This document shows positions 8,279 through 14,154 of a stretch of 14,154 nucleotides of DNA, piece after piece. The DNA comes from Candidatus Auribacterota bacterium (lineage in GTDB: Bacteria; Auribacterota; Tritonobacteria; UBA1439): NCBI GenBank assembly GCA_026391995.1, contig JAPLCY010000132.1:1-14154 (forward strand), given 5' to 3'. The notes beneath the pieces are model-generated. The model was not told the origin of the DNA, did no database searches, and was given only the letters and a program-made list of their open reading frames with translations. Made by a program: the position numbers and the translations under genes. The stretch's first letter is position 1; every line of letters begins with the position of its first letter.

Positions 8279-8324
8279 CTGAGAACACCGGGGTAACGTG
8301 TGTGTGGTGTTCTCAGTGGTTTTT
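8279..8324 (+). terminator. Intrinsic terminator after the TPR gene
   Basis: CTGAGAACACC at 8279-8289 pairs perfectly with GGTGTTCTCAG at 8306-8316 (11 bp, 16-base loop), followed by TGG and five T at 8320-8324. The T-run overlaps the stop codon of the convergent nadE (8323-8325). On the minus strand the hairpin is followed by C-rich DNA, so it acts mainly on plus-strand transcription. Confidence 0.75.
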
Positions 8325-9057
8325 AGTAATACCTCTGCGCGAGCGGCATCCGCCGTCCCAGGCCGAACGCCTTTGAGGTGATCTTGAGTCCGGGGGGCGC
8401 CTGCTCCCGCTTGTACTCGTTGTGCTCCACCCGCCTGACAATCTCGCGCACCAGCCTGCGATTGAATCCCGCGGCGATGATCGTTTCCGGCTTTTCCCTC
8501 TTCTCTATGTAACGCGCAAGGATCGCGTCGAGGACCTCGTAGGGGGGCAGGCTGTCCTGGTCGGTCTGCCGGGGCTTCAACTCGGCGGACGGTGCGCGCG
8601 TGATGCAGTGGGCGGGGATGATCTCTTGAGAGCGGTTGATGTAGTGCGCAAGGGCGTAGACGAGCGTCTTGGGGACATCCGAAAGGGCGGCGAGCCCCCC
8701 CGACATGTCGCCGTAGAGCGTACAATACCCCACGGCGAGCTCGGACTTGTTCCCCGTGGAAAGGACGAGGCAGCCGAACTTGTTCGAGAGGGCCATCAAA
8801 ATATTTCCGCGGATACGGGCCTGGATGTTCTCCTCCGTCTCATCCGGCCGGCGACGGCAAAAGTGTGGCGTGAGGGTGGCGAGATACACACGGTACAACG
8901 GCGCGATGGGAACAACGGAGAGCTTGATCCCGAGATTGGCCGCCAGCGCCCGCGCGTCGCGGAGGCTCGCCGGGGAGGAGTACGGCGACGGCATGGCCAC
9001 GCCGTGGACATTCCTTGAGCCCAGCGCACTCACGGCGATGCACGCGGTAACCGCAGA
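8323..9057 (-). CDS. nadE: NAD+ synthetase, C-terminal synthetase domain (3' part of frameshifted nadE)
   Basis: Reading from 9057 to 8323 gives SAVTACIAVSALGSRNVHGV, then MPSPYSS, then the LSTGNKSELAVGYCTLYGD block. These are hallmarks of the ATP-pyrophosphatase synthetase domain that adenylates nicotinic acid adenine dinucleotide and amidates it to NAD+. The C-terminus (EYKREQAPPGLKITSKAFG, then GRRMPLAQRYY) is also typical. No start codon or ribosome site is present at the front of this part. It is the direct continuation of the frame ending at Ile301 of the upstream half, displaced by one base. Joined, the protein would be about 545 residues, normal for a glutamine-dependent bacterial NadE. 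The tail meets the terminator of the convergent TPR gene. Product identity is secure; whether the gene works in the organism is not. Confidence 0.85.
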   Translation of the reverse strand, partial: SAVTACIAVSALGSRNVHGVAMPSPYSSPASLRDARALAANLGIKLSVVPIAPLYRVYLATLTPHFCRRRPDETEENIQARIRGNILMALSNKFGCLVLSTGNKSELAVGYCTLYGDMSGGLAALSDVPKTLVYALAHYINRSQEIIPAHCITRAPSAELKPRQTDQDSLPPYEVLDAILARYIEKREKPETIIAAGFNRRLVREIVRRVEHNEYKREQAPPGLKITSKAFGLGRRMPLAQRYY

Positions 9058-9962
9058 GTAATGCCGCCGCTCAGGCCGATGACGGCCGCCCTGAAGCCGC
9101 ACTTCCGGGCATAATCGCGCACCCCCAGAGCGAGGGTGTCATACACCGTTTCCTGGAGCGGCTCCTCGACCCATGGCCCGCGCAACGGTGCCGCGCCGGT
9201 GTCGACAATAATCAAATCCTCCCCGAACGCCCGGCCCGCGGCGAGCAGCTCGCCATCGCGGTTCACGGCGAGGCTGCACCCGTCGAACACAAGCTGGTCG
9301 TTCCCCCCCACCTGGTTGACATAGACCACCGGCATCTGGTATTTGGCGGCGATGTTCTTCAGGATGGACCGCCGCATTGACCTGCGACCGATCGTGAACG
9401 GGGATGCCGAGATCGTCACGAGGAGTTCCGCCCCCTCGCGGGCCAGCAGCTCGACCGGGTCGACCGTGTAGAACCTCTGCTTCCAGAGAGCGGGGTCGTT
9501 CCATATATCCTCGCAGATGCTCAACCCCAGCCGCGTCCCCTTGAGCGAAGCCGTCGTCACATGGTCGGCGGGATCAAAGTAGCGGTCCTCGTCGAACACA
9601 TCATAGGCCGGCAGCAGCATCTTGTGAAACACCTTCCTGACCTTCCCCTCACGGATGAAGGCCCCGGCGTTGAAGAGCCCCTTGCCGGTGGTCGAACTGC
9701 TGCGCGCGGCGTATCCCACGATGACCGCCATCCGGCCGACCCGACCAGCGAGGCGATCGAGGGTTTTAAGATTGTCATCGATAAAGTCGCGGTTGAGGAG
9801 CAGGTCGCGGGCCGGATAGCCGGTGATCGCCATTTCGGGAAAGATGCAGAGATCGGAGCTGCGGCGCTCGGCCTGCTTCGTGAACGAGAGGATCTTGGCG
9901 AGATTGCCCTTGAAATCACCGACCGTCGGATTGACCTGCGCGAGGGCTATTTTCACACGCAC
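9030..9962 (-). CDS. nadE: Glutamine-dependent NAD+ synthetase, N-terminal nitrilase domain (5' part of frameshifted nadE)
   Basis: The N-terminus (MRVKIALAQVNPTVGDFKGN) and the Glu43 (FPEMAITGYP), Lys114 (VFHKMLLPAYDVFDEDRYFD) and Cys150 (SICEDIW) motifs form the complete Glu-Lys-Cys triad of the nitrilase-fold glutaminase. This domain supplies ammonia to the synthetase domain, which makes NAD+ from deamido-NAD, the last step of NAD synthesis. The frame reaches GLSGGI (298-301), the ATP P-loop, then breaks. Adding one G between 9059 and 9060 (minus-strand reading ATT-GAC-TCT) restores SGGIDSAVTA exactly. The given start is GTG 9960-9962; GTG 9954-9956, two codons later, has the better spacing from AGAAGG. 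Six bases separate it from the thioesterase stop, so the two genes are probably cotranscribed. Confidence 0.87.
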   Translation of the reverse strand: MRVKIALAQVNPTVGDFKGNLAKILSFTKQAERRSSDLCIFPEMAITGYPARDLLLNRDFIDDNLKTLDRLAGRVGRMAVIVGYAARSSSTTGKGLFNAGAFIREGKVRKVFHKMLLPAYDVFDEDRYFDPADHVTTASLKGTRLGLSICEDIWNDPALWKQRFYTVDPVELLAREGAELLVTISASPFTIGRRSMRRSILKNIAAKYQMPVVYVNQVGGNDQLVFDGCSLAVNRDGELLAAGRAFGEDLIIVDTGAAPLRGPWVEEPLQETVYDTLALGVRDYARKCGFRAAVIGLSGGITLRLPRASP

Positions 9963-10826: not shown

Positions 10827-10907
10827 CTGATCGTCCTTTTGCATGGTGTGAGCGTACTAAAAATGGCGCGGCCGAACAACAGCTATCATAACTTGCCGCG
10901 CCTAGCG

Positions 10908-10956
10908 GCGCGAACAAGTCGTTCGAGCGGGCACCGCTCAATTCCGTCGTTCGCTC
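10908..10956 (+). other. attC recombination site 1
   Basis: R'' GCGCGAAC (10908-10915), L'' TTCGAGCGG (10922-10930), a GCA loop only three bases long, L' CCGCTCAA (10934-10941) and R' GTTCGCTC (10949-10956). L'' pairs with L' leaving one unpaired G, the extrahelical base by which integrase picks the strand. Crossover would fall between G10949 and T10950. An independent hairpin (CGCGCC 10897-10902 with GGCGCG 10907-10912, extended by ACTTG/CAAGT) overlaps R''. Confidence 0.85.
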
Positions 10957-10979
10957 AAAAAATGGAATGAAATAACCGT

Positions 10980-10999
10980 ACTTTTGTAGTATCATAAGT
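10980..10999. promoter_or_regulatory. Possible operator/promoter dyad upstream of hicB
   Basis: ACTTTTG (10980-10986) and CATAAGT (10993-10999) form a 7-bp dyad with one mismatch, around a -10-like TATCAT (10990-10995). No clear -35 box is visible. Toxin-antitoxin cassettes usually carry their own promoter, so one is expected here, but the assignment is weak. Confidence 0.3.
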
Positions 11000-11015
11000 G
11001 TTGGAGGATCTTGAA

Positions 11016-11225
11016 ATGATCCAGGAGTTCAACGTTGTTATCGAAAAAGATGGAGACGGCTACTTCGTCGCCAGCGTCCCCGCGCTTAGGGGCTGCCACA
11101 CGCAAGCCAAGTCGCTGGATGTGTTGATGAAGCGTGTTCGCGAAGCCATTGAGCTATGTTTAGAGGTTGAAAAGCCGATATCAAATGAGTTTGTCGGCGT
11201 ACAGCGCGTGGCAGTAAGAATATGA
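11016..11225 (+). CDS. hicB: HicB-family antitoxin
   Basis: The 69-residue protein MIQEFNVVIEKDGDGYFVAS, followed by VPALRGCHTQAKSLDVLMKR and VREAIELCLEVEK, is the compact partial RNase H-like HicB fold. The family binds and inhibits HicA mRNA interferase. ATG 11016 is chosen because GGAGGA (11003-11008) lies 7 bases before it; a GTG at 10998 is in frame but overlaps the putative promoter. There is no C-terminal ribbon-helix-helix or HTH extension, unlike the longer HicB of E. coli, so autoregulation by this short form is doubtful. The stop overlaps the toxin start as ATGA (11222-11225), giving tight antitoxin-first coupling. The pair fills one integron cassette, a known setting where toxin-antitoxin pairs can stabilise an array. 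Confidence 0.9.
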   Translation: MIQEFNVVIEKDGDGYFVASVPALRGCHTQAKSLDVLMKRVREAIELCLEVEKPISNEFVGVQRVAVRI

Positions 11226-11446
11226 GTAGAATTCCTGCAATCGCAGGAGGCCAGCTCATTAAGGCGCTACAGCGACTCGGTTTTGAAGTCATCCGTATCA
11301 AGGGTAGCCATCATTTCCCTCGGCATCCTGACGGGCGGTGTACTGTAGTGCCGGTTCATCGAAAAGAAACAATCGGTCGAGGGCTCCTCGCCCAGATATT
11401 TCGCGACTGCGAAATTACCCGTGAAGAATTTAAAGACCACCTCTGA
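11222..11446 (+). CDS. hicA: HicA-family mRNA interferase toxin
   Basis: The 74-residue double-stranded-RNA-binding-like fold is recognisable from the order GGQLIKALQRLGFEVIRIKG, SHHFPRH, TVVPVHRKETIGRGLLAQIF and the acidic C-terminus. His30 in the GSHHF motif is the catalytic residue of the family, which cleaves mRNA and halts growth when HicB is lost. The ATG overlaps the hicB stop by ATGA. The stop TGA (11444-11446) overlaps the first bases of attC site 2, so the cassette has no spare sequence at its 3' end. All family residues I know are present, so the toxin looks intact and the pair probably functional. It reads in the cassette direction. Confidence 0.9.
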   Translation: MSRIPAIAGGQLIKALQRLGFEVIRIKGSHHFPRHPDGRCTVVPVHRKETIGRGLLAQIFRDCEITREEFKDHL

Positions 11447-11512
11447 GCGAACAAGCCATTCGAGCGGACACTCCCGCAGGGCGGGACTGCCGCTTAATTC
11501 CATCGTTGGCTC
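11445..11512 (+). other. attC recombination site 2
   Basis: R'' GAGCGAAC (11445-11452), L'' TTCGAGCGG (11459-11467), L' CCGCTTAA (11490-11497) and R' GTTGGCTC (11505-11512). The variable part carries a small hairpin, TCCCGC/GCGGGA (11472-11486). L''/L' pair with one G unpaired and one G-T wobble. R'' is the exact complement of the start of the hicBA cassette at 10949-10956. Confidence 0.88.
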
Positions 11513-11536
11513 TATCTACAGATTGCGAGGATAAAT

Positions 11537-12169
11537 ATGAATACACCCGTTCTAGAAGGTTTGAAGATTGTCGCTAATCTGATGGCTGTGTCTGTTTGTA
11601 CGGCCCCAAAAGCCGGTGGGGCAGATTGGATTCAATCAAAACTCACAACAGGTGAAGAAAAAAATAATATTTCTAGAATAATGCAAGAAATAGGTGAGTC
11701 AAAAGAAAAAGCCATTTCCAAATCAAGCAAGGACAGAGGCGCTGCAATACGGATGGATTGGATGAGTGATGCAAAATCTGTTGAGTCCTCAGCCCTCTTG
11801 TTTCTCATAGGAATCCAAGGTCGTAAGGTAGTTGGCATTAATTGCGGAGGGTGTGGTTTTTCAGCTTGTTCTGAAATGCTTAAGCAAAATCCTCTTTCAA
11901 CGAACGAAGGCGATTTTCCAGGTCCCTTTTGTATGTTTAGGATCATGGATTTAAGTATTGCAGCAGGTTCTGCTATTAAGACTGCTATGGATCATAACGT
12001 TGATAATCGAATGATGCAGAAAATCGGAGTGGCAGCACTGAAATTGGGATTATTAAATCCGTGCAATCTCATATTAGGGATACCTCTTGCTGCAACAAGT
12101 AAAAACATATTCTTTGATCGTCCGGAAAAGTTAGAAGCCTGGAAGATCCTTAATTCAAAAAGAGACTGA
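11537..12169 (+). CDS. DUF2148 ferredoxin-domain protein in an integron cassette
   Basis: At 210 residues this matches the DUF2148 family along its length: an N-terminal TAPKAGGAD segment with TTGEE, a central NCGGCGFSAC block, then CMFRIMDLSIAAGSAIKTAM, VDNRMMQKIGVAALKLGLL and a KNIFFDRPEKLEAW end. Cys103, Cys106, Cys111 and Cys132 (CX2CX4CX20C) could hold a 4Fe-4S cluster. The biochemical role of the family is unknown. From general knowledge it is most common in anaerobes and archaea, so the cassette setting is unexpected. The start is supported by GAGG at 11527-11530. The stop lies just before attC site 3. Composition is clearly richer in A+T than the flanking chromosome, in keeping with transfer. 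Confidence 0.82.
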   Translation: MNTPVLEGLKIVANLMAVSVCTAPKAGGADWIQSKLTTGEEKNNISRIMQEIGESKEKAISKSSKDRGAAIRMDWMSDAKSVESSALLFLIGIQGRKVVGINCGGCGFSACSEMLKQNPLSTNEGDFPGPFCMFRIMDLSIAAGSAIKTAMDHNVDNRMMQKIGVAALKLGLLNPCNLILGIPLAATSKNIFFDRPEKLEAWKILNSKRD

Positions 12170-12170
12170 T

Positions 12171-12266
12171 TAGCCGAACAAGCGCATGCAGGCGGATGCG
12201 GGTTGTCGCTCGCGCATTCCCGCGTCCCGCTAAGCGGGATCGCCGCTCAATTCCGTCGTTATGTGC
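12171..12266 (+). other. attC recombination site 3
   Basis: R'' TAGCCGAAC (12171-12179), L'' TGCAGGCGG (12187-12195), a long structured variable part with TCCCGC/GCGGGA (12225-12239), L' CCGCTCAA (12243-12250) and R' GTTATGTGC (12258-12266). The 18 bases at 12243-12260 are identical to attC site 1 at 10934-10951. L''/L' pairing is weaker than in the other sites, and R'' matches the start of its own cassette with one bulged base. Confidence 0.8.
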
Positions 12267-12294
12267 AATAAATACACAGAACTACTGATGAAAC

Positions 12295-12687
12295 ATGAAT
12301 AACTCATTGAAAGGTGCTTGTCTTTCGGGCCTTGTATACCCAGGCATGGGTCAGATTGTTCAGAAACACTATTTGAGAGGACTTGCGCTAATCGGTATCG
12401 TCACAGTAAATTTATCAGTAATTATACTTACTACATCAAAGCAAATAGAAACAATTCTTACCAATATTGAGTCAAGTGGTGGCGAATATGACGTGACAAC
12501 AATTTTACATGAGGCTACCAAGTTCTCTATAAGCCCATACAATGGAATAATGAAAATATCATCGGCGTTGATATTGTGTTGTTGGGCGATCGGAATTGTT
12601 GACGCGTATCTGTCAGGGAAGAGAATGGACTTAGAAAATAAAGCACATAACCAGGCAATGCAGCCGACCGACAGAGCCGGCGGCTGA
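12295..12687 (+). CDS. Small membrane protein in an integron cassette, frame running into attC
   Basis: This 130-residue protein opens with MNNSLKGACLSGLVYPGMGQ. The PGMGQ turn, followed by a first hydrophobic helix (about residues 28-46, LRGLALIGIVTVNLSVIIL) and a second (about 85-103, MKISSALILCCWAIGIVDAY), recalls small TM2/DUF5683-like membrane proteins; the exact family is not certain. A polar loop of about 40 residues lies between the helices. The last 13 residues, HNQAMQPTDRAGG, are translated from attC site 4, and the TGA lies in its L' arm. From memory, NQAMQPT tails are common in cassette-encoded proteins for this reason. ATG 12295 has no clear ribosome site, so the start is less sure. 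The function is unknown. Confidence 0.7.
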   Translation: MNNSLKGACLSGLVYPGMGQIVQKHYLRGLALIGIVTVNLSVIILTTSKQIETILTNIESSGGEYDVTTILHEATKFSISPYNGIMKISSALILCCWAIGIVDAYLSGKRMDLENKAHNQAMQPTDRAGG

Positions 12688-12704
12688 TTGATGACGTCAG
12701 GCAC
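12643..12704 (+). other. attC recombination site 4, degenerate 3' core
   Basis: R'' GCACATAAC (12643-12651) is the exact complement of the start of this cassette (12258-12266). L'' ATGCAGCCG (12658-12666) pairs with L' CGGCTGAT (12681-12688), leaving a single unpaired G. The expected GTT of R' reads GTC (GTCAGGCAC, 12696-12704). Its sequence type differs from sites 1-3. Confidence 0.78.
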
Positions 12705-12757: not shown

Positions 12758-13645
12758 ATGAGCATAACGATAGTTTTATCAATGTGTATGGCCGTACTAT
12801 TAACACCTGCCTTGTCTTCGGCATCTGATAAGACATTGGAAACCTCTCACCTTATAGTGAGTGACGCCACGGGCAATCTTTCAGATGAGCAACTAAAACG
12901 ATTAGCAGACCAGGCGCAGGAAACACTGAGTAGAATCCTTGCATTCTGGTCTGCTGATCCCGGAATAGCACGATTTGGAAAGATAAGGGTGGTTTTTGAT
13001 GTACCGCGCAGGGATGTCTACTCGAGTGTTTTTTATTGGGACAAGAAGGGAGATCAAAGAATACGCGTCGTTCGGGTTTTCGGCACTGATGGAGCACCGC
13101 AAATGATGGCACACAAGCTTACGAGTGCCGTATTTCCCCAAAAGGATAAATTGATTCGCAACATGATGGGTATTCTTACAGAGGCGCAAGTTGGCAATCC
13201 ATTAACTTTCCCCATGTGTGGATTCAGCAGTGACGACTGGGTATTGGCTCTCTTGAAAACAAAATCATACATCCCTCTGAATGAATTGGGACCGGATCAT
13301 GAGTCATGGGGTATGAAGGACGCGGGCGGCGGCAGGCTCTCGATTCACGACAAAGCCAAACAACACAAGGCCTATGCCGAAACAGGGTCCTTCGGCAACT
13401 ATCTGTTTCAGACCTACGGAATCAACAAGATAAAGCAGTTCCAACGGCTCTCCCATGAGAAGGATCGGCCATGGCAGGACGTGTTCGGGATCAGCCTGCA
13501 AGAACTTGAGACGAATTGGCTCAAGACTCTGAGGGCGAATGAAAAAACAAAAGAGGAAAATATTTCGATAGTATCGAAGTTGATTAAAAGGAACCCGAGT
13601 ACAGCCTGTGCGGAGGCGCAGCAACACGTAACGAGCAAACGGTAA
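12758..13645 (+). CDS. Secreted gluzincin-like protein with degenerate HExxH (putative pseudopeptidase)
   Basis: A signal peptide is clear (MSITIVLSMCMAVLLTPALS, cleavage near SSASDK). The order of motifs recalls the peptidase-MA-like metallopeptidases often found in bacterial secreted proteins: an N-terminal LIVSDATGNLSDEQLKRLAD part, a zinc-site helix, a GILTEAQ helix, and the C-terminal block ETGSFGNYLFQTYGINKIKQ, with WQDVFGISLQELETNWLKTL. The zinc-site helix reads AHKLTSAVF (His119-Lys-Leu-Thr-Ser123) where HExxH is expected, so the catalytic Glu and second His are missing. Glu142 sits where a third ligand would. It should be inactive if this homology is right. GGGAG at 12747-12751 supports ATG 12758. 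It follows the last attC, but no attC closes it, so cassette membership is unproven. Its first half is richer in A+T than the chromosome. Confidence 0.65.
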   Translation: MSITIVLSMCMAVLLTPALSSASDKTLETSHLIVSDATGNLSDEQLKRLADQAQETLSRILAFWSADPGIARFGKIRVVFDVPRRDVYSSVFYWDKKGDQRIRVVRVFGTDGAPQMMAHKLTSAVFPQKDKLIRNMMGILTEAQVGNPLTFPMCGFSSDDWVLALLKTKSYIPLNELGPDHESWGMKDAGGGRLSIHDKAKQHKAYAETGSFGNYLFQTYGINKIKQFQRLSHEKDRPWQDVFGISLQELETNWLKTLRANEKTKEENISIVSKLIKRNPSTACAEAQQHVTSKR

Positions 13646-13725: not shown

Positions 13726-14154
13726 ATGAAGTGCGTGCTCTGGATGATGCTCGCCTTGGCGTTCGTCGGCGCCGTGCTTGTCGCCATGCGTCCGGCCGCG
13801 ACGCCGTCCCGTGCATCCGCGGATCAGCCTCCCGTCATACCGCTCATTGATGCGGCCATGAAGGCACGGCTACGCGAAGTATATCTGCGCGGGCAGGCGA
13901 CGGGGAACCATCCAGATACCTTCAGCAAGATCGGCGACAGCATCACCGCCACCTACTCGTTCCTTGCCGTCACCATCGGCTGCGACGACTACAACCTCGC
14001 CGGGCATGCCGAACTCCAGGCGGCAATTGACTATTTCAAAACCCGCGAATTCACTCCCGATACCACCGATGTCTGGTGCGGGGTGTCGAACTCATTTTCG
14101 CGCGTGAGCAGGAGTGCGGAGAGCGGCTGGAGCGCCGCCTCGGCCCTCGAAACG
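13726..14154 (+). CDS. Secreted protein with GDSxT (SGNH-like) motif, 3' partial
   Basis: The frame from ATG 13726 stays open to the window end (143 codons). It starts with a signal peptide or anchor (MKCVLWMMLALAFVGAVLVA). After a Pro/Ala linker it reads VYLRGQATGNHPDTFSKIGD-SITATYSFLA. The Gly70-Asp71-Ser72 motif resembles block I of SGNH/GDSL hydrolases, whose Ser is the nucleophile. The later NLAGHAELQAAIDYFKTREF and NSFSRVSRSAESGWSAASAL stretches recall a family of extracellular proteins from metagenomes that I cannot name. The catalytic Asp/His block lies beyond the window, so activity cannot be judged. AAAGGG at 13715-13720 gives a fair ribosome site. Composition returns to GC-rich, so this is probably resident chromosome after the accessory segment. 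Confidence 0.6.
   Translation, partial: MKCVLWMMLALAFVGAVLVAMRPAATPSRASADQPPVIPLIDAAMKARLREVYLRGQATGNHPDTFSKIGDSITATYSFLAVTIGCDDYNLAGHAELQAAIDYFKTREFTPDTTDVWCGVSNSFSRVSRSAESGWSAASALET

What the first reader, a model, noticed from the sequence alone, without database searches (positions are those of the whole stretch)
10908..12704. Integron cassette cluster without an integrase in an otherwise housekeeping chromosomal region
Four attC-type sites with R''-L''-L'-R' order, paired arms and (in three) an unpaired G enclose three compact cassettes in one orientation. Exact end complementarity of the hicBA and membrane-protein cassettes is hard to explain otherwise. Upstream genes are nadE, a thioesterase and a DUF6941-like protein, with no intI. 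This looks like a cassette cluster lacking integrase or the tail of a longer array.
Basis: partly seen in the sequence, partly recalled or inferred. Interest (0 to 1): 0.85.

Follow-up and report, generated by a model that had tools for sequence, protein, structure and literature searches.

The report
Integron gene-cassette cluster without local integrase
A small cluster of captured genes, bounded by the folded recombination sites that integrons use, sits between two ordinary chromosomal genes of an uncultured Auribacterota bacterium; it is a known kind of element, and an enzyme of the type that moves such genes is encoded elsewhere in the same draft genome.

Summary
The cassette cluster is real. 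A covariance model built only from 14 attC sites of plasmid class 1 integrons hits three of the four claimed sites in the window (31.9, 26.4 and 17.6-24.8 bits; next best 6.7). It has no match at E<=10 in 780,931 bases of 54 other loci. The third site (12173-12264) is not hit by that model and scores 9.2 bits (E 1.1) with a second one. I accept it only from position, shared right arm and partial end pairing. The ends of the hicBA and membrane-protein cassettes are the only two 9-bp matches among 867 GTT/AAC pairs. One same-family genome has both flanking genes side by side, about 0.36 kb apart, without attC. The cassettes are AT-rich (44% against 62% GC). No integrase match lies on the contig, but the MAG encodes a complete integron integrase on contig C368 and further attC sites on C123, C242 and C388. 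A same-genus genome has IntI beside a cassette array. This is a CALIN, a known kind, in Candidatus Auribacterota.

The parts
   Evidence: PF22091 78.7 bits; same neighbours in relatives
10909..10955 (+). attC site 1 (47 b), bounds cassette 1 on the left; no cassette gene upstream of it
   Evidence: R1 31.9 bits E 5e-6; R2 39.3 bits
10950..11505 (+). cassette 1 (hicBA), from the TT of the GTT at 10949 to the G of the next GTT
   Evidence: 9-bp complementary ends GTTCGCTCA / TGAGCGAAC
11016..11225 (+). hicB antitoxin gene (ATG chosen by eye from a Shine-Dalgarno-like GGAGG; the listed ORF starts GTG 10998)
   Evidence: PF15919 27.1 bits, at the cut-off of 27; ORF
11222..11446 (+). hicA toxin gene
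   Evidence: PF07927 63.3 bits
11446..11511 (+). attC site 2 (66 b), belongs to the hicBA cassette
   Evidence: R1 17.6 bits E 0.015, 24.8 bits; R2 40.1 bits
11506..12258 (+). cassette 2 (DUF2148 ferredoxin-like protein)
   Evidence: lies between sites 2 and 3; ends GTTGGCT / AGCC(G)AAC pair only with one bulged base (sequence)
11537..12169 (+). DUF2148 ferredoxin-domain protein gene
   Evidence: PF09918 100.7 bits; relatives up to 92% in unnamed proteins, 76% in a Thermodesulfobacteriota record
12173..12264 (+). attC site 3, degenerate: conserved right arm, diverged left arm
   Evidence: no R1 hit; R2 only 9.2 bits E 1.1; right arm 20 of 24 identical to site 1
12259..12696 (+). cassette 3 (small membrane protein)
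   Evidence: 9-bp complementary ends GTTATGTGC / GCACATAAC
12295..12687 (+). small membrane protein gene (DUF5683-like); its C-terminus is encoded by attC site 4
   Evidence: PF18935 21.2 bits, below cut-off 26.7; two of six relatives read share the attC-encoded ending
12645..12702 (+). attC site 4 (58 b), last site, degenerate R' (GTCAGGC)
   Evidence: R1 26.4 bits E 1e-4; R2 29.5 bits
12758..13645 (+). 295-aa ORF of unknown family, AT-rich, between the last attC and the right flank; may be a former cassette or a separate insert
   Evidence: no Pfam or NCBIfam hit; GC 0.473; no match in the five syntenic loci
13726..14154 (+). right flank: chromosomal gene (partial), next to DUF6941 in relative G003
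   Evidence: 59% identity over 112 aa to L122 7621-7289; no Pfam hit

Best explanation
This is a CALIN: three integron gene cassettes (hicBA toxin-antitoxin, a DUF2148 ferredoxin-like protein, a small membrane protein) with their attC sites, in one orientation between two chromosomal genes of a Candidatus Auribacterota bacterium. Shown: attC identity of sites 1, 2 and 4, the borders of cassettes 1 and 3, deviant base composition, and a locus without the insert in one relative. Inferred: the cassettes were assembled by an IntI acting on the folded bottom strand of attC at the G/TT bond, then either moved here as a block or captured here in trans by the IntI encoded on another contig, with later decay of the outer sites (site 4 R', site 3 left arm). 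The hicBA pair would help keep the cluster by addiction, as proposed for other chromosomal integrons.
For: The class-1-integron attC model hits 3 of 4 sites with clear separation from the next hit and has no match at E<=10 in 780,931 bases of 54 loci. Nine-base end complementarity occurs exactly at the borders of cassettes 1 and 3, the only two among 867 pairs. G003 lacks the insert and R1 finds no attC in the five syntenic loci. GC is 0.443 in the cassettes against 0.617 and 0.627 in the flanks. A complete IntI is encoded elsewhere in the genome with all six catalytic residues. Further attC sites lie on C123 (R1 34.1 bits), C242 (R1 19.4 bits E 0.063) and, weakly by R1, C388 (16.8 bits, E 2.9 in the genome scan). 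A same-genus genome has IntI with a divergent cassette array. hicAB cassettes have precedent (PMC4909258, passages).
Against: Site 3 is not supported by either covariance model on its own. A complete attC stands at the left edge with no cassette gene before it, which simple one-by-one insertion at a secondary site would not leave. The draft assembly (395 contigs) cannot link this cluster to the IntI contig, and C368 shows no attC hit in its 4,032 bases. The filled/empty contrast rests on one relative.
Confidence: 0.93

Rival explanations
1. The cluster belongs to one long chromosomal integron whose IntI (C368) and other arrays (C123, C242, C388) were separated only by assembly breaks at the repeated attC sites.
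For: C123 starts inside an attC arm (by eye) and the first 98 bases of C242 match R2 weakly, cut off by the contig end (12.2 bits, E 0.86), as breaks at repeats would give. IntI lies on a short 4,032-base contig. Draft genomes are known to split integrons (PMC9024848, passages).
Against: The window has chromosomal genes on both sides of the cluster, in an order conserved on the left in relatives and on the right in G003, so IntI is at least 10.9 kb away on the left; on the right only 1.45 kb is visible. C368 has no attC hit in the 631 bases upstream or 2.1 kb downstream of intI.
Confidence: 0.12
2. The repeats are not attC sites but a family of intergenic palindromic repeats (REP/MITE-like) that happen to sit between small genes.
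For: Similar copies occur on several contigs, some as halves (C235, C72), and one head-to-head inverted pair occurs on C242.
Against: An attC model trained on plasmid integrons recognises them. The outer boxes of cassettes 1 and 3 are complementary to their own ends and differ between cassettes, which a dispersed repeat family would not produce. The genus has IntI beside such arrays.
Confidence: 0.03
3. The cluster is a relic of a complete integron that once stood here and lost its own intI.
For: The full attC at the left edge with no gene, a degenerate last site, and a possible reversed attC end just upstream (about 10889-10900, by eye) suggest deletion at the edges.
Against: The integrase-family search found no match on the window contig, and R1 finds no attC at the syntenic locus of G003.
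Confidence: 0.25

Closest known systems
CALIN (cluster of attC sites lacking integron-integrase; IntegronFinder terminology)
   Same: At least two attC sites close together, cassettes in one orientation, no intI on the contig
   Different: None in kind; small (3 cassettes) and with one degenerate site
Integron of the same genus (G001, contig C61, locus L090)
   Same: Same genus, attC-bounded cassettes and an IntI with an N-terminal extension like that of the IntI in this genome
   Different: There IntI and array are on one contig and divergent; here the cluster has no IntI beside it
Class 1 integron cassettes of plasmids (source of model R1)
   Same: R''-L''-L'-R' layout and structure, recognised by the same model
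   Different: Genes here are toxin-antitoxin, ferredoxin-like and membrane proteins in a chromosomal setting, not drug resistance on plasmids

Membership tests
CALIN | at least two attC sites less than 4 kb apart | tested here: met
   three sites by covariance model within 1.8 kb, plus one degenerate site; definition from passages of PMC9024848 and PMC9668308
CALIN | no integron integrase beside the cluster | tested here: met
   no integrase-family match on the window contig; the only over-cut-off match in the genome is on C368; only 1.45 kb is visible on the right
integron gene cassette | cassette ends complementary (TTRRRY start pairs with its own attC R'' box) | tested here: met
   cassettes 1 and 3: 9 of 9 bp; cassette 2 only with one bulged base
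integron gene cassette | attC secondary structure with paired L boxes and an extrahelical base | tested here: met
   sites 1, 2 and 4 align to the models with L boxes paired; site 3 only partly
integron gene cassette | site-specific recombination by IntI | not testable with these tools
   needs an excision or attC x attI assay
complete integron | intI adjacent to attI and array | tested here: not met
   no intI match in the window; no attC hit on the IntI contig; attI was not searched for
HicAB toxin-antitoxin | HicA and HicB homology in adjacent genes | tested here: met
   PF07927 63.3 bits; PF15919 27.1 bits, just at the cut-off of 27

The most novel reading that the evidence does not exclude
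This genome keeps several small cassette islands dispersed among housekeeping genes, served in trans by one integron integrase of a lineage with an extra ~110-residue N-terminal domain. In 3 of the 6 extended IntIs examined here (G001, G021, G031) attC hits do lie divergently upstream. The extra domain might change site choice and favour insertion outside attI.
Probability: 0.15. Interest if true: 0.55.

Novelty: new member of a known kind. Interest (0 to 1): 0.3.

Why it matters
It adds an integron-bearing lineage in Candidatus Auribacterota, for which two searches of the held library (integron with Aureabacteria; integron with Auribacterota) found no paper; papers outside that library were not searched. 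It also gives a filled/empty locus pair showing a cassette cluster away from any integrase. The kind of element is well known, so the gain is modest; the extended IntI is the part most worth following.

Tried and rejected
A home-made attC finder (script) could not separate real sites from chance hits and was dropped in favour of covariance models; I used it only to pick out sites inside known cassette intergenic regions. Of 18 such regions, 3 gave no candidate (aadA1, OXA-10, gcuF), the second catB2 copy and arr-3 were dropped as near-duplicates or mis-bounded, and one row was added from the second candidate in the dfrA1 region, leaving 14 rows. Rfam has no gathering-threshold hit in the window. 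Loci L096 (Kovacikia), L098 and L099 were fetched but gave no rows. A reading frame with stops was used by mistake for the right flank and corrected. Apparent head-to-head attC pairs on G031 look like parts of one larger palindrome and were not pursued. A promoter/terminator scan found 8 promoter-like sites (shuffles: mean 4.7, sd 2.4) and no terminator-like site; no use was made of it. Model R2 contains 3 own-genome sites (C123, C242:160-216, C388) among its 17 rows, so its hits there are by construction; none of its rows is from the window. R1's scan of the own genome scored only 150 of 861 candidate places and R2's 150 of 1160, so attC counts there are lower bounds. The R1 scan of relatives used E <= 0.1 per genome, stricter filters and at most 140 scored candidates per genome; single weak hits such as those of G020, G038 and G041 may be chance. 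Against a simple link of IntI and arrays: of the 12 genomes in that scan with an integrase over the cut-off, 7 had attC hits and 5 (G008, G021, G022, G033, G034) had none, although G021 and G022 had hits in the contig-level search.

Full report
What was checked. The window is a whole contig (C376, 14,154 bases) of a 395-contig draft genome, 83.9% complete. That record's contig is letter for letter the contig of the same-genus genome G001 (L028 equals L121), so the genome belongs to Candidatus Auribacterota, PVC group.

attC sites. To avoid circularity I built a covariance model (R1) from 14 attC sites of class 1 integron plasmids (loci L097, L100-L104). On the window with filters off it gives 10909-10955 (31.9 bits, E 5e-6), 12645-12702 (26.4 bits, E 1e-4) and 11450-11507 (17.6 bits, E 0.015); the next match has 6.7 bits. 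In the genome-wide scan the second site is scored over its full length with 24.8 bits. As a control, R1 (default filters) has no match at E <= 10 in 54 loci of 780,931 bases, one of them from this genus and the rest from other lineages; by comparison this corresponds to roughly 13 bits or more. Site 3 fails: R1 gives at most 1.8 bits on overlapping stretches. A second model R2, built from 17 sites outside the window, 3 of them from other contigs of this genome, gives 9.2 bits, E 1.1, ranking fifth, while the other three sites rise to 29.5-40.1 bits. I keep site 3 as a degenerate attC because it stands exactly between two cassettes, its right arm matches site 1 in 20 of 24 bases, and its R'' box pairs with the start of its own cassette if one base is bulged (sequence).

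Cassettes. The start and end of cassette 1 (hicBA) and of cassette 3 (membrane protein) are complementary over 9 bp. Among all 867 GTT/AAC pairs 300-900 bases apart in the window, two reach 9, and these are the two; seven reach 7, none 8. Cassette 2 has only the 3 anchored bases without a bulge. Contents: HicB (27.1 bits, at the cut-off of 27) and HicA (63.3 bits), DUF2148 ferredoxin-domain protein (100.7 bits), and a DUF5683-like membrane protein (21.2 bits, below the cut-off of 26.7). The last residues of the membrane protein are encoded by attC site 4. Of 38 proteins listed (one of them this protein) I read six: two of 68-69% identity (P0071, P0072) end almost the same way, which suggests that they too are cassettes, and four (P0075, P0077, P0084, P0100) do not share that ending in full. 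DUF2148 relatives reach 92% in unnamed proteins and 76% in a Thermodesulfobacteriota record.

Insertion. GC is 0.617 left of the cluster, 0.443 across the cassettes, 0.473 in the following 295-aa ORF and 0.627 in the right flank. nadE, thioesterase and DUF6941 genes stand in the same order in five of five relatives' loci; the TPR-like gene beyond nadE was matched in four, and not in G001, whose contig ends about 0.5 kb past nadE. In G003 the gene next to DUF6941, divergently oriented, is the homologue of the window's right flank (59% over 112 aa), with roughly 0.36 kb between the starts (read by eye) against about 2.9 kb in the window. R1 finds no attC in these five loci (54,069 bases, default filters). 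So about 2.5 kb, cassettes plus the 295-aa ORF, is extra in this genome, or lost from G003. The right-flank gene was not found in the other four loci, so the filled/empty contrast rests on one relative.

Integrase. The integrase-family search finds no match on the window contig. The genome has one complete integron integrase: C368, 411.8 bits against a cut-off of 265; the other two integrases (C53, C317) score 84 bits or less, and the 14 control genomes all match the family but none above the cut-off. It carries R, K, H, R, H and Y at the positions of IntI1 R146, K171, H277, R280, H303 and Y312 (position numbers recalled, alignment) and, by eye, the IntI-type insertion before the H-R motif. 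Its contig has no attC hit. Other attC sites of this genome: C123:784-843 (R1 34.1 bits) beside a methyltransferase cassette whose ends pair in 9 of 10 bases by eye; C242, R1 19.4 bits at 160-216 and R2 23.2-39.6 bits near 813-939, around a ParE-like toxin-antitoxin pair; and C388 (R1 16.8 bits, E 2.9 in the genome scan; it was a training row of R2). An attC-arm pattern occurs 5 times without mismatch, each time in one of these sites or the window's; with up to 2 mismatches there are 16 matches against 7 for the reversed pattern.

The phylum. An integrase over the cut-off occurs in 13 of 59 genomes searched, this one included; all 13 are among the 44 genomes of the phylum. R1 finds attC-like hits at E <= 0.1 in 18 of 43 genomes, this one included, up to 34 in G012; a few single weak hits are expected by chance. 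In G001 (same genus) the IntI at 6430-7683 of L090 has attC hits on its 5' side in the divergent, canonical orientation: two by R1 and three more by R2, for which the first two were training rows. With filters off R1 kept only one of the two and two weak ones. Six of the 12 phylum IntIs aligned (own, G001, G008, G021, G031, G034) carry an N-terminal extension of roughly 100 residues before the usual SAM-like domain; three more integrase matches (G022, G043, G006:C24) were left out as incomplete. Three of the six have attC hits divergently upstream (G001, G021, G031); own C368, G008 and G034 do not. G031 lacks the first catalytic arginine (Q). The first 115 residues of the own IntI have 69 relatives among public proteins. 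I found no paper on the extension: the phrase pair 'integron integrase' and 'N-terminal extension' returned one paper, whose passages concern other recombinases.

Verdict. This is a CALIN, a frequent kind of element: IntegronFinder 2 counts 2961 CALIN against 2760 complete integrons and notes that draft genomes tend to overestimate them (PMC9024848, passages seen). In archaeal MAGs, IntI genes without adjacent attC were found together with attC clusters on other contigs (PMC9668308, passages seen). HicAB cassettes are described from a saliva metagenome and the Treponema denticola integron (PMC4909258, passages seen). The finding is sound and mostly ordinary. How the cluster reached this place (capture in trans, block transfer, or decay of an integron) is inference.

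Noticed in passing
G000:C368, L025:632-1921: Integron integrase of 429 aa with a ~110-aa N-terminal extension; 69 public proteins match its first 115 residues and five other Auribacterota IntIs carry a similar extension; function unknown.
   Followed up: partly
G000:C242, L142:72-146 and window about 10889-10919: Two attC-like stretches head to head (inverted) on C242; the window has a short reversed attC-like end directly upstream of site 1, with a similar stretch on C72.
   Followed up: partly
window 12758-13645: AT-rich 295-aa ORF of no known family between the last attC and the right flanking gene; could be a cassette that lost its attC.
   Followed up: partly
window 8323-9962 (-): The gene read as nadE is split into two overlapping reading frames (310 and 259 aa), a frameshift or assembly error; in the relatives the two matches follow one another.
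   Followed up: no
G012, contigs C22, C53, C58, C64 and others: 34 attC hits in one Auribacterota genome over many contigs, with IntI genes over the cut-off on C28 and C23: probably a large chromosomal integron.
   Followed up: no
G031:C364, L088:6405-8594: Cassette borders made of one very large palindrome that the attC model matches on both strands.
   Followed up: partly
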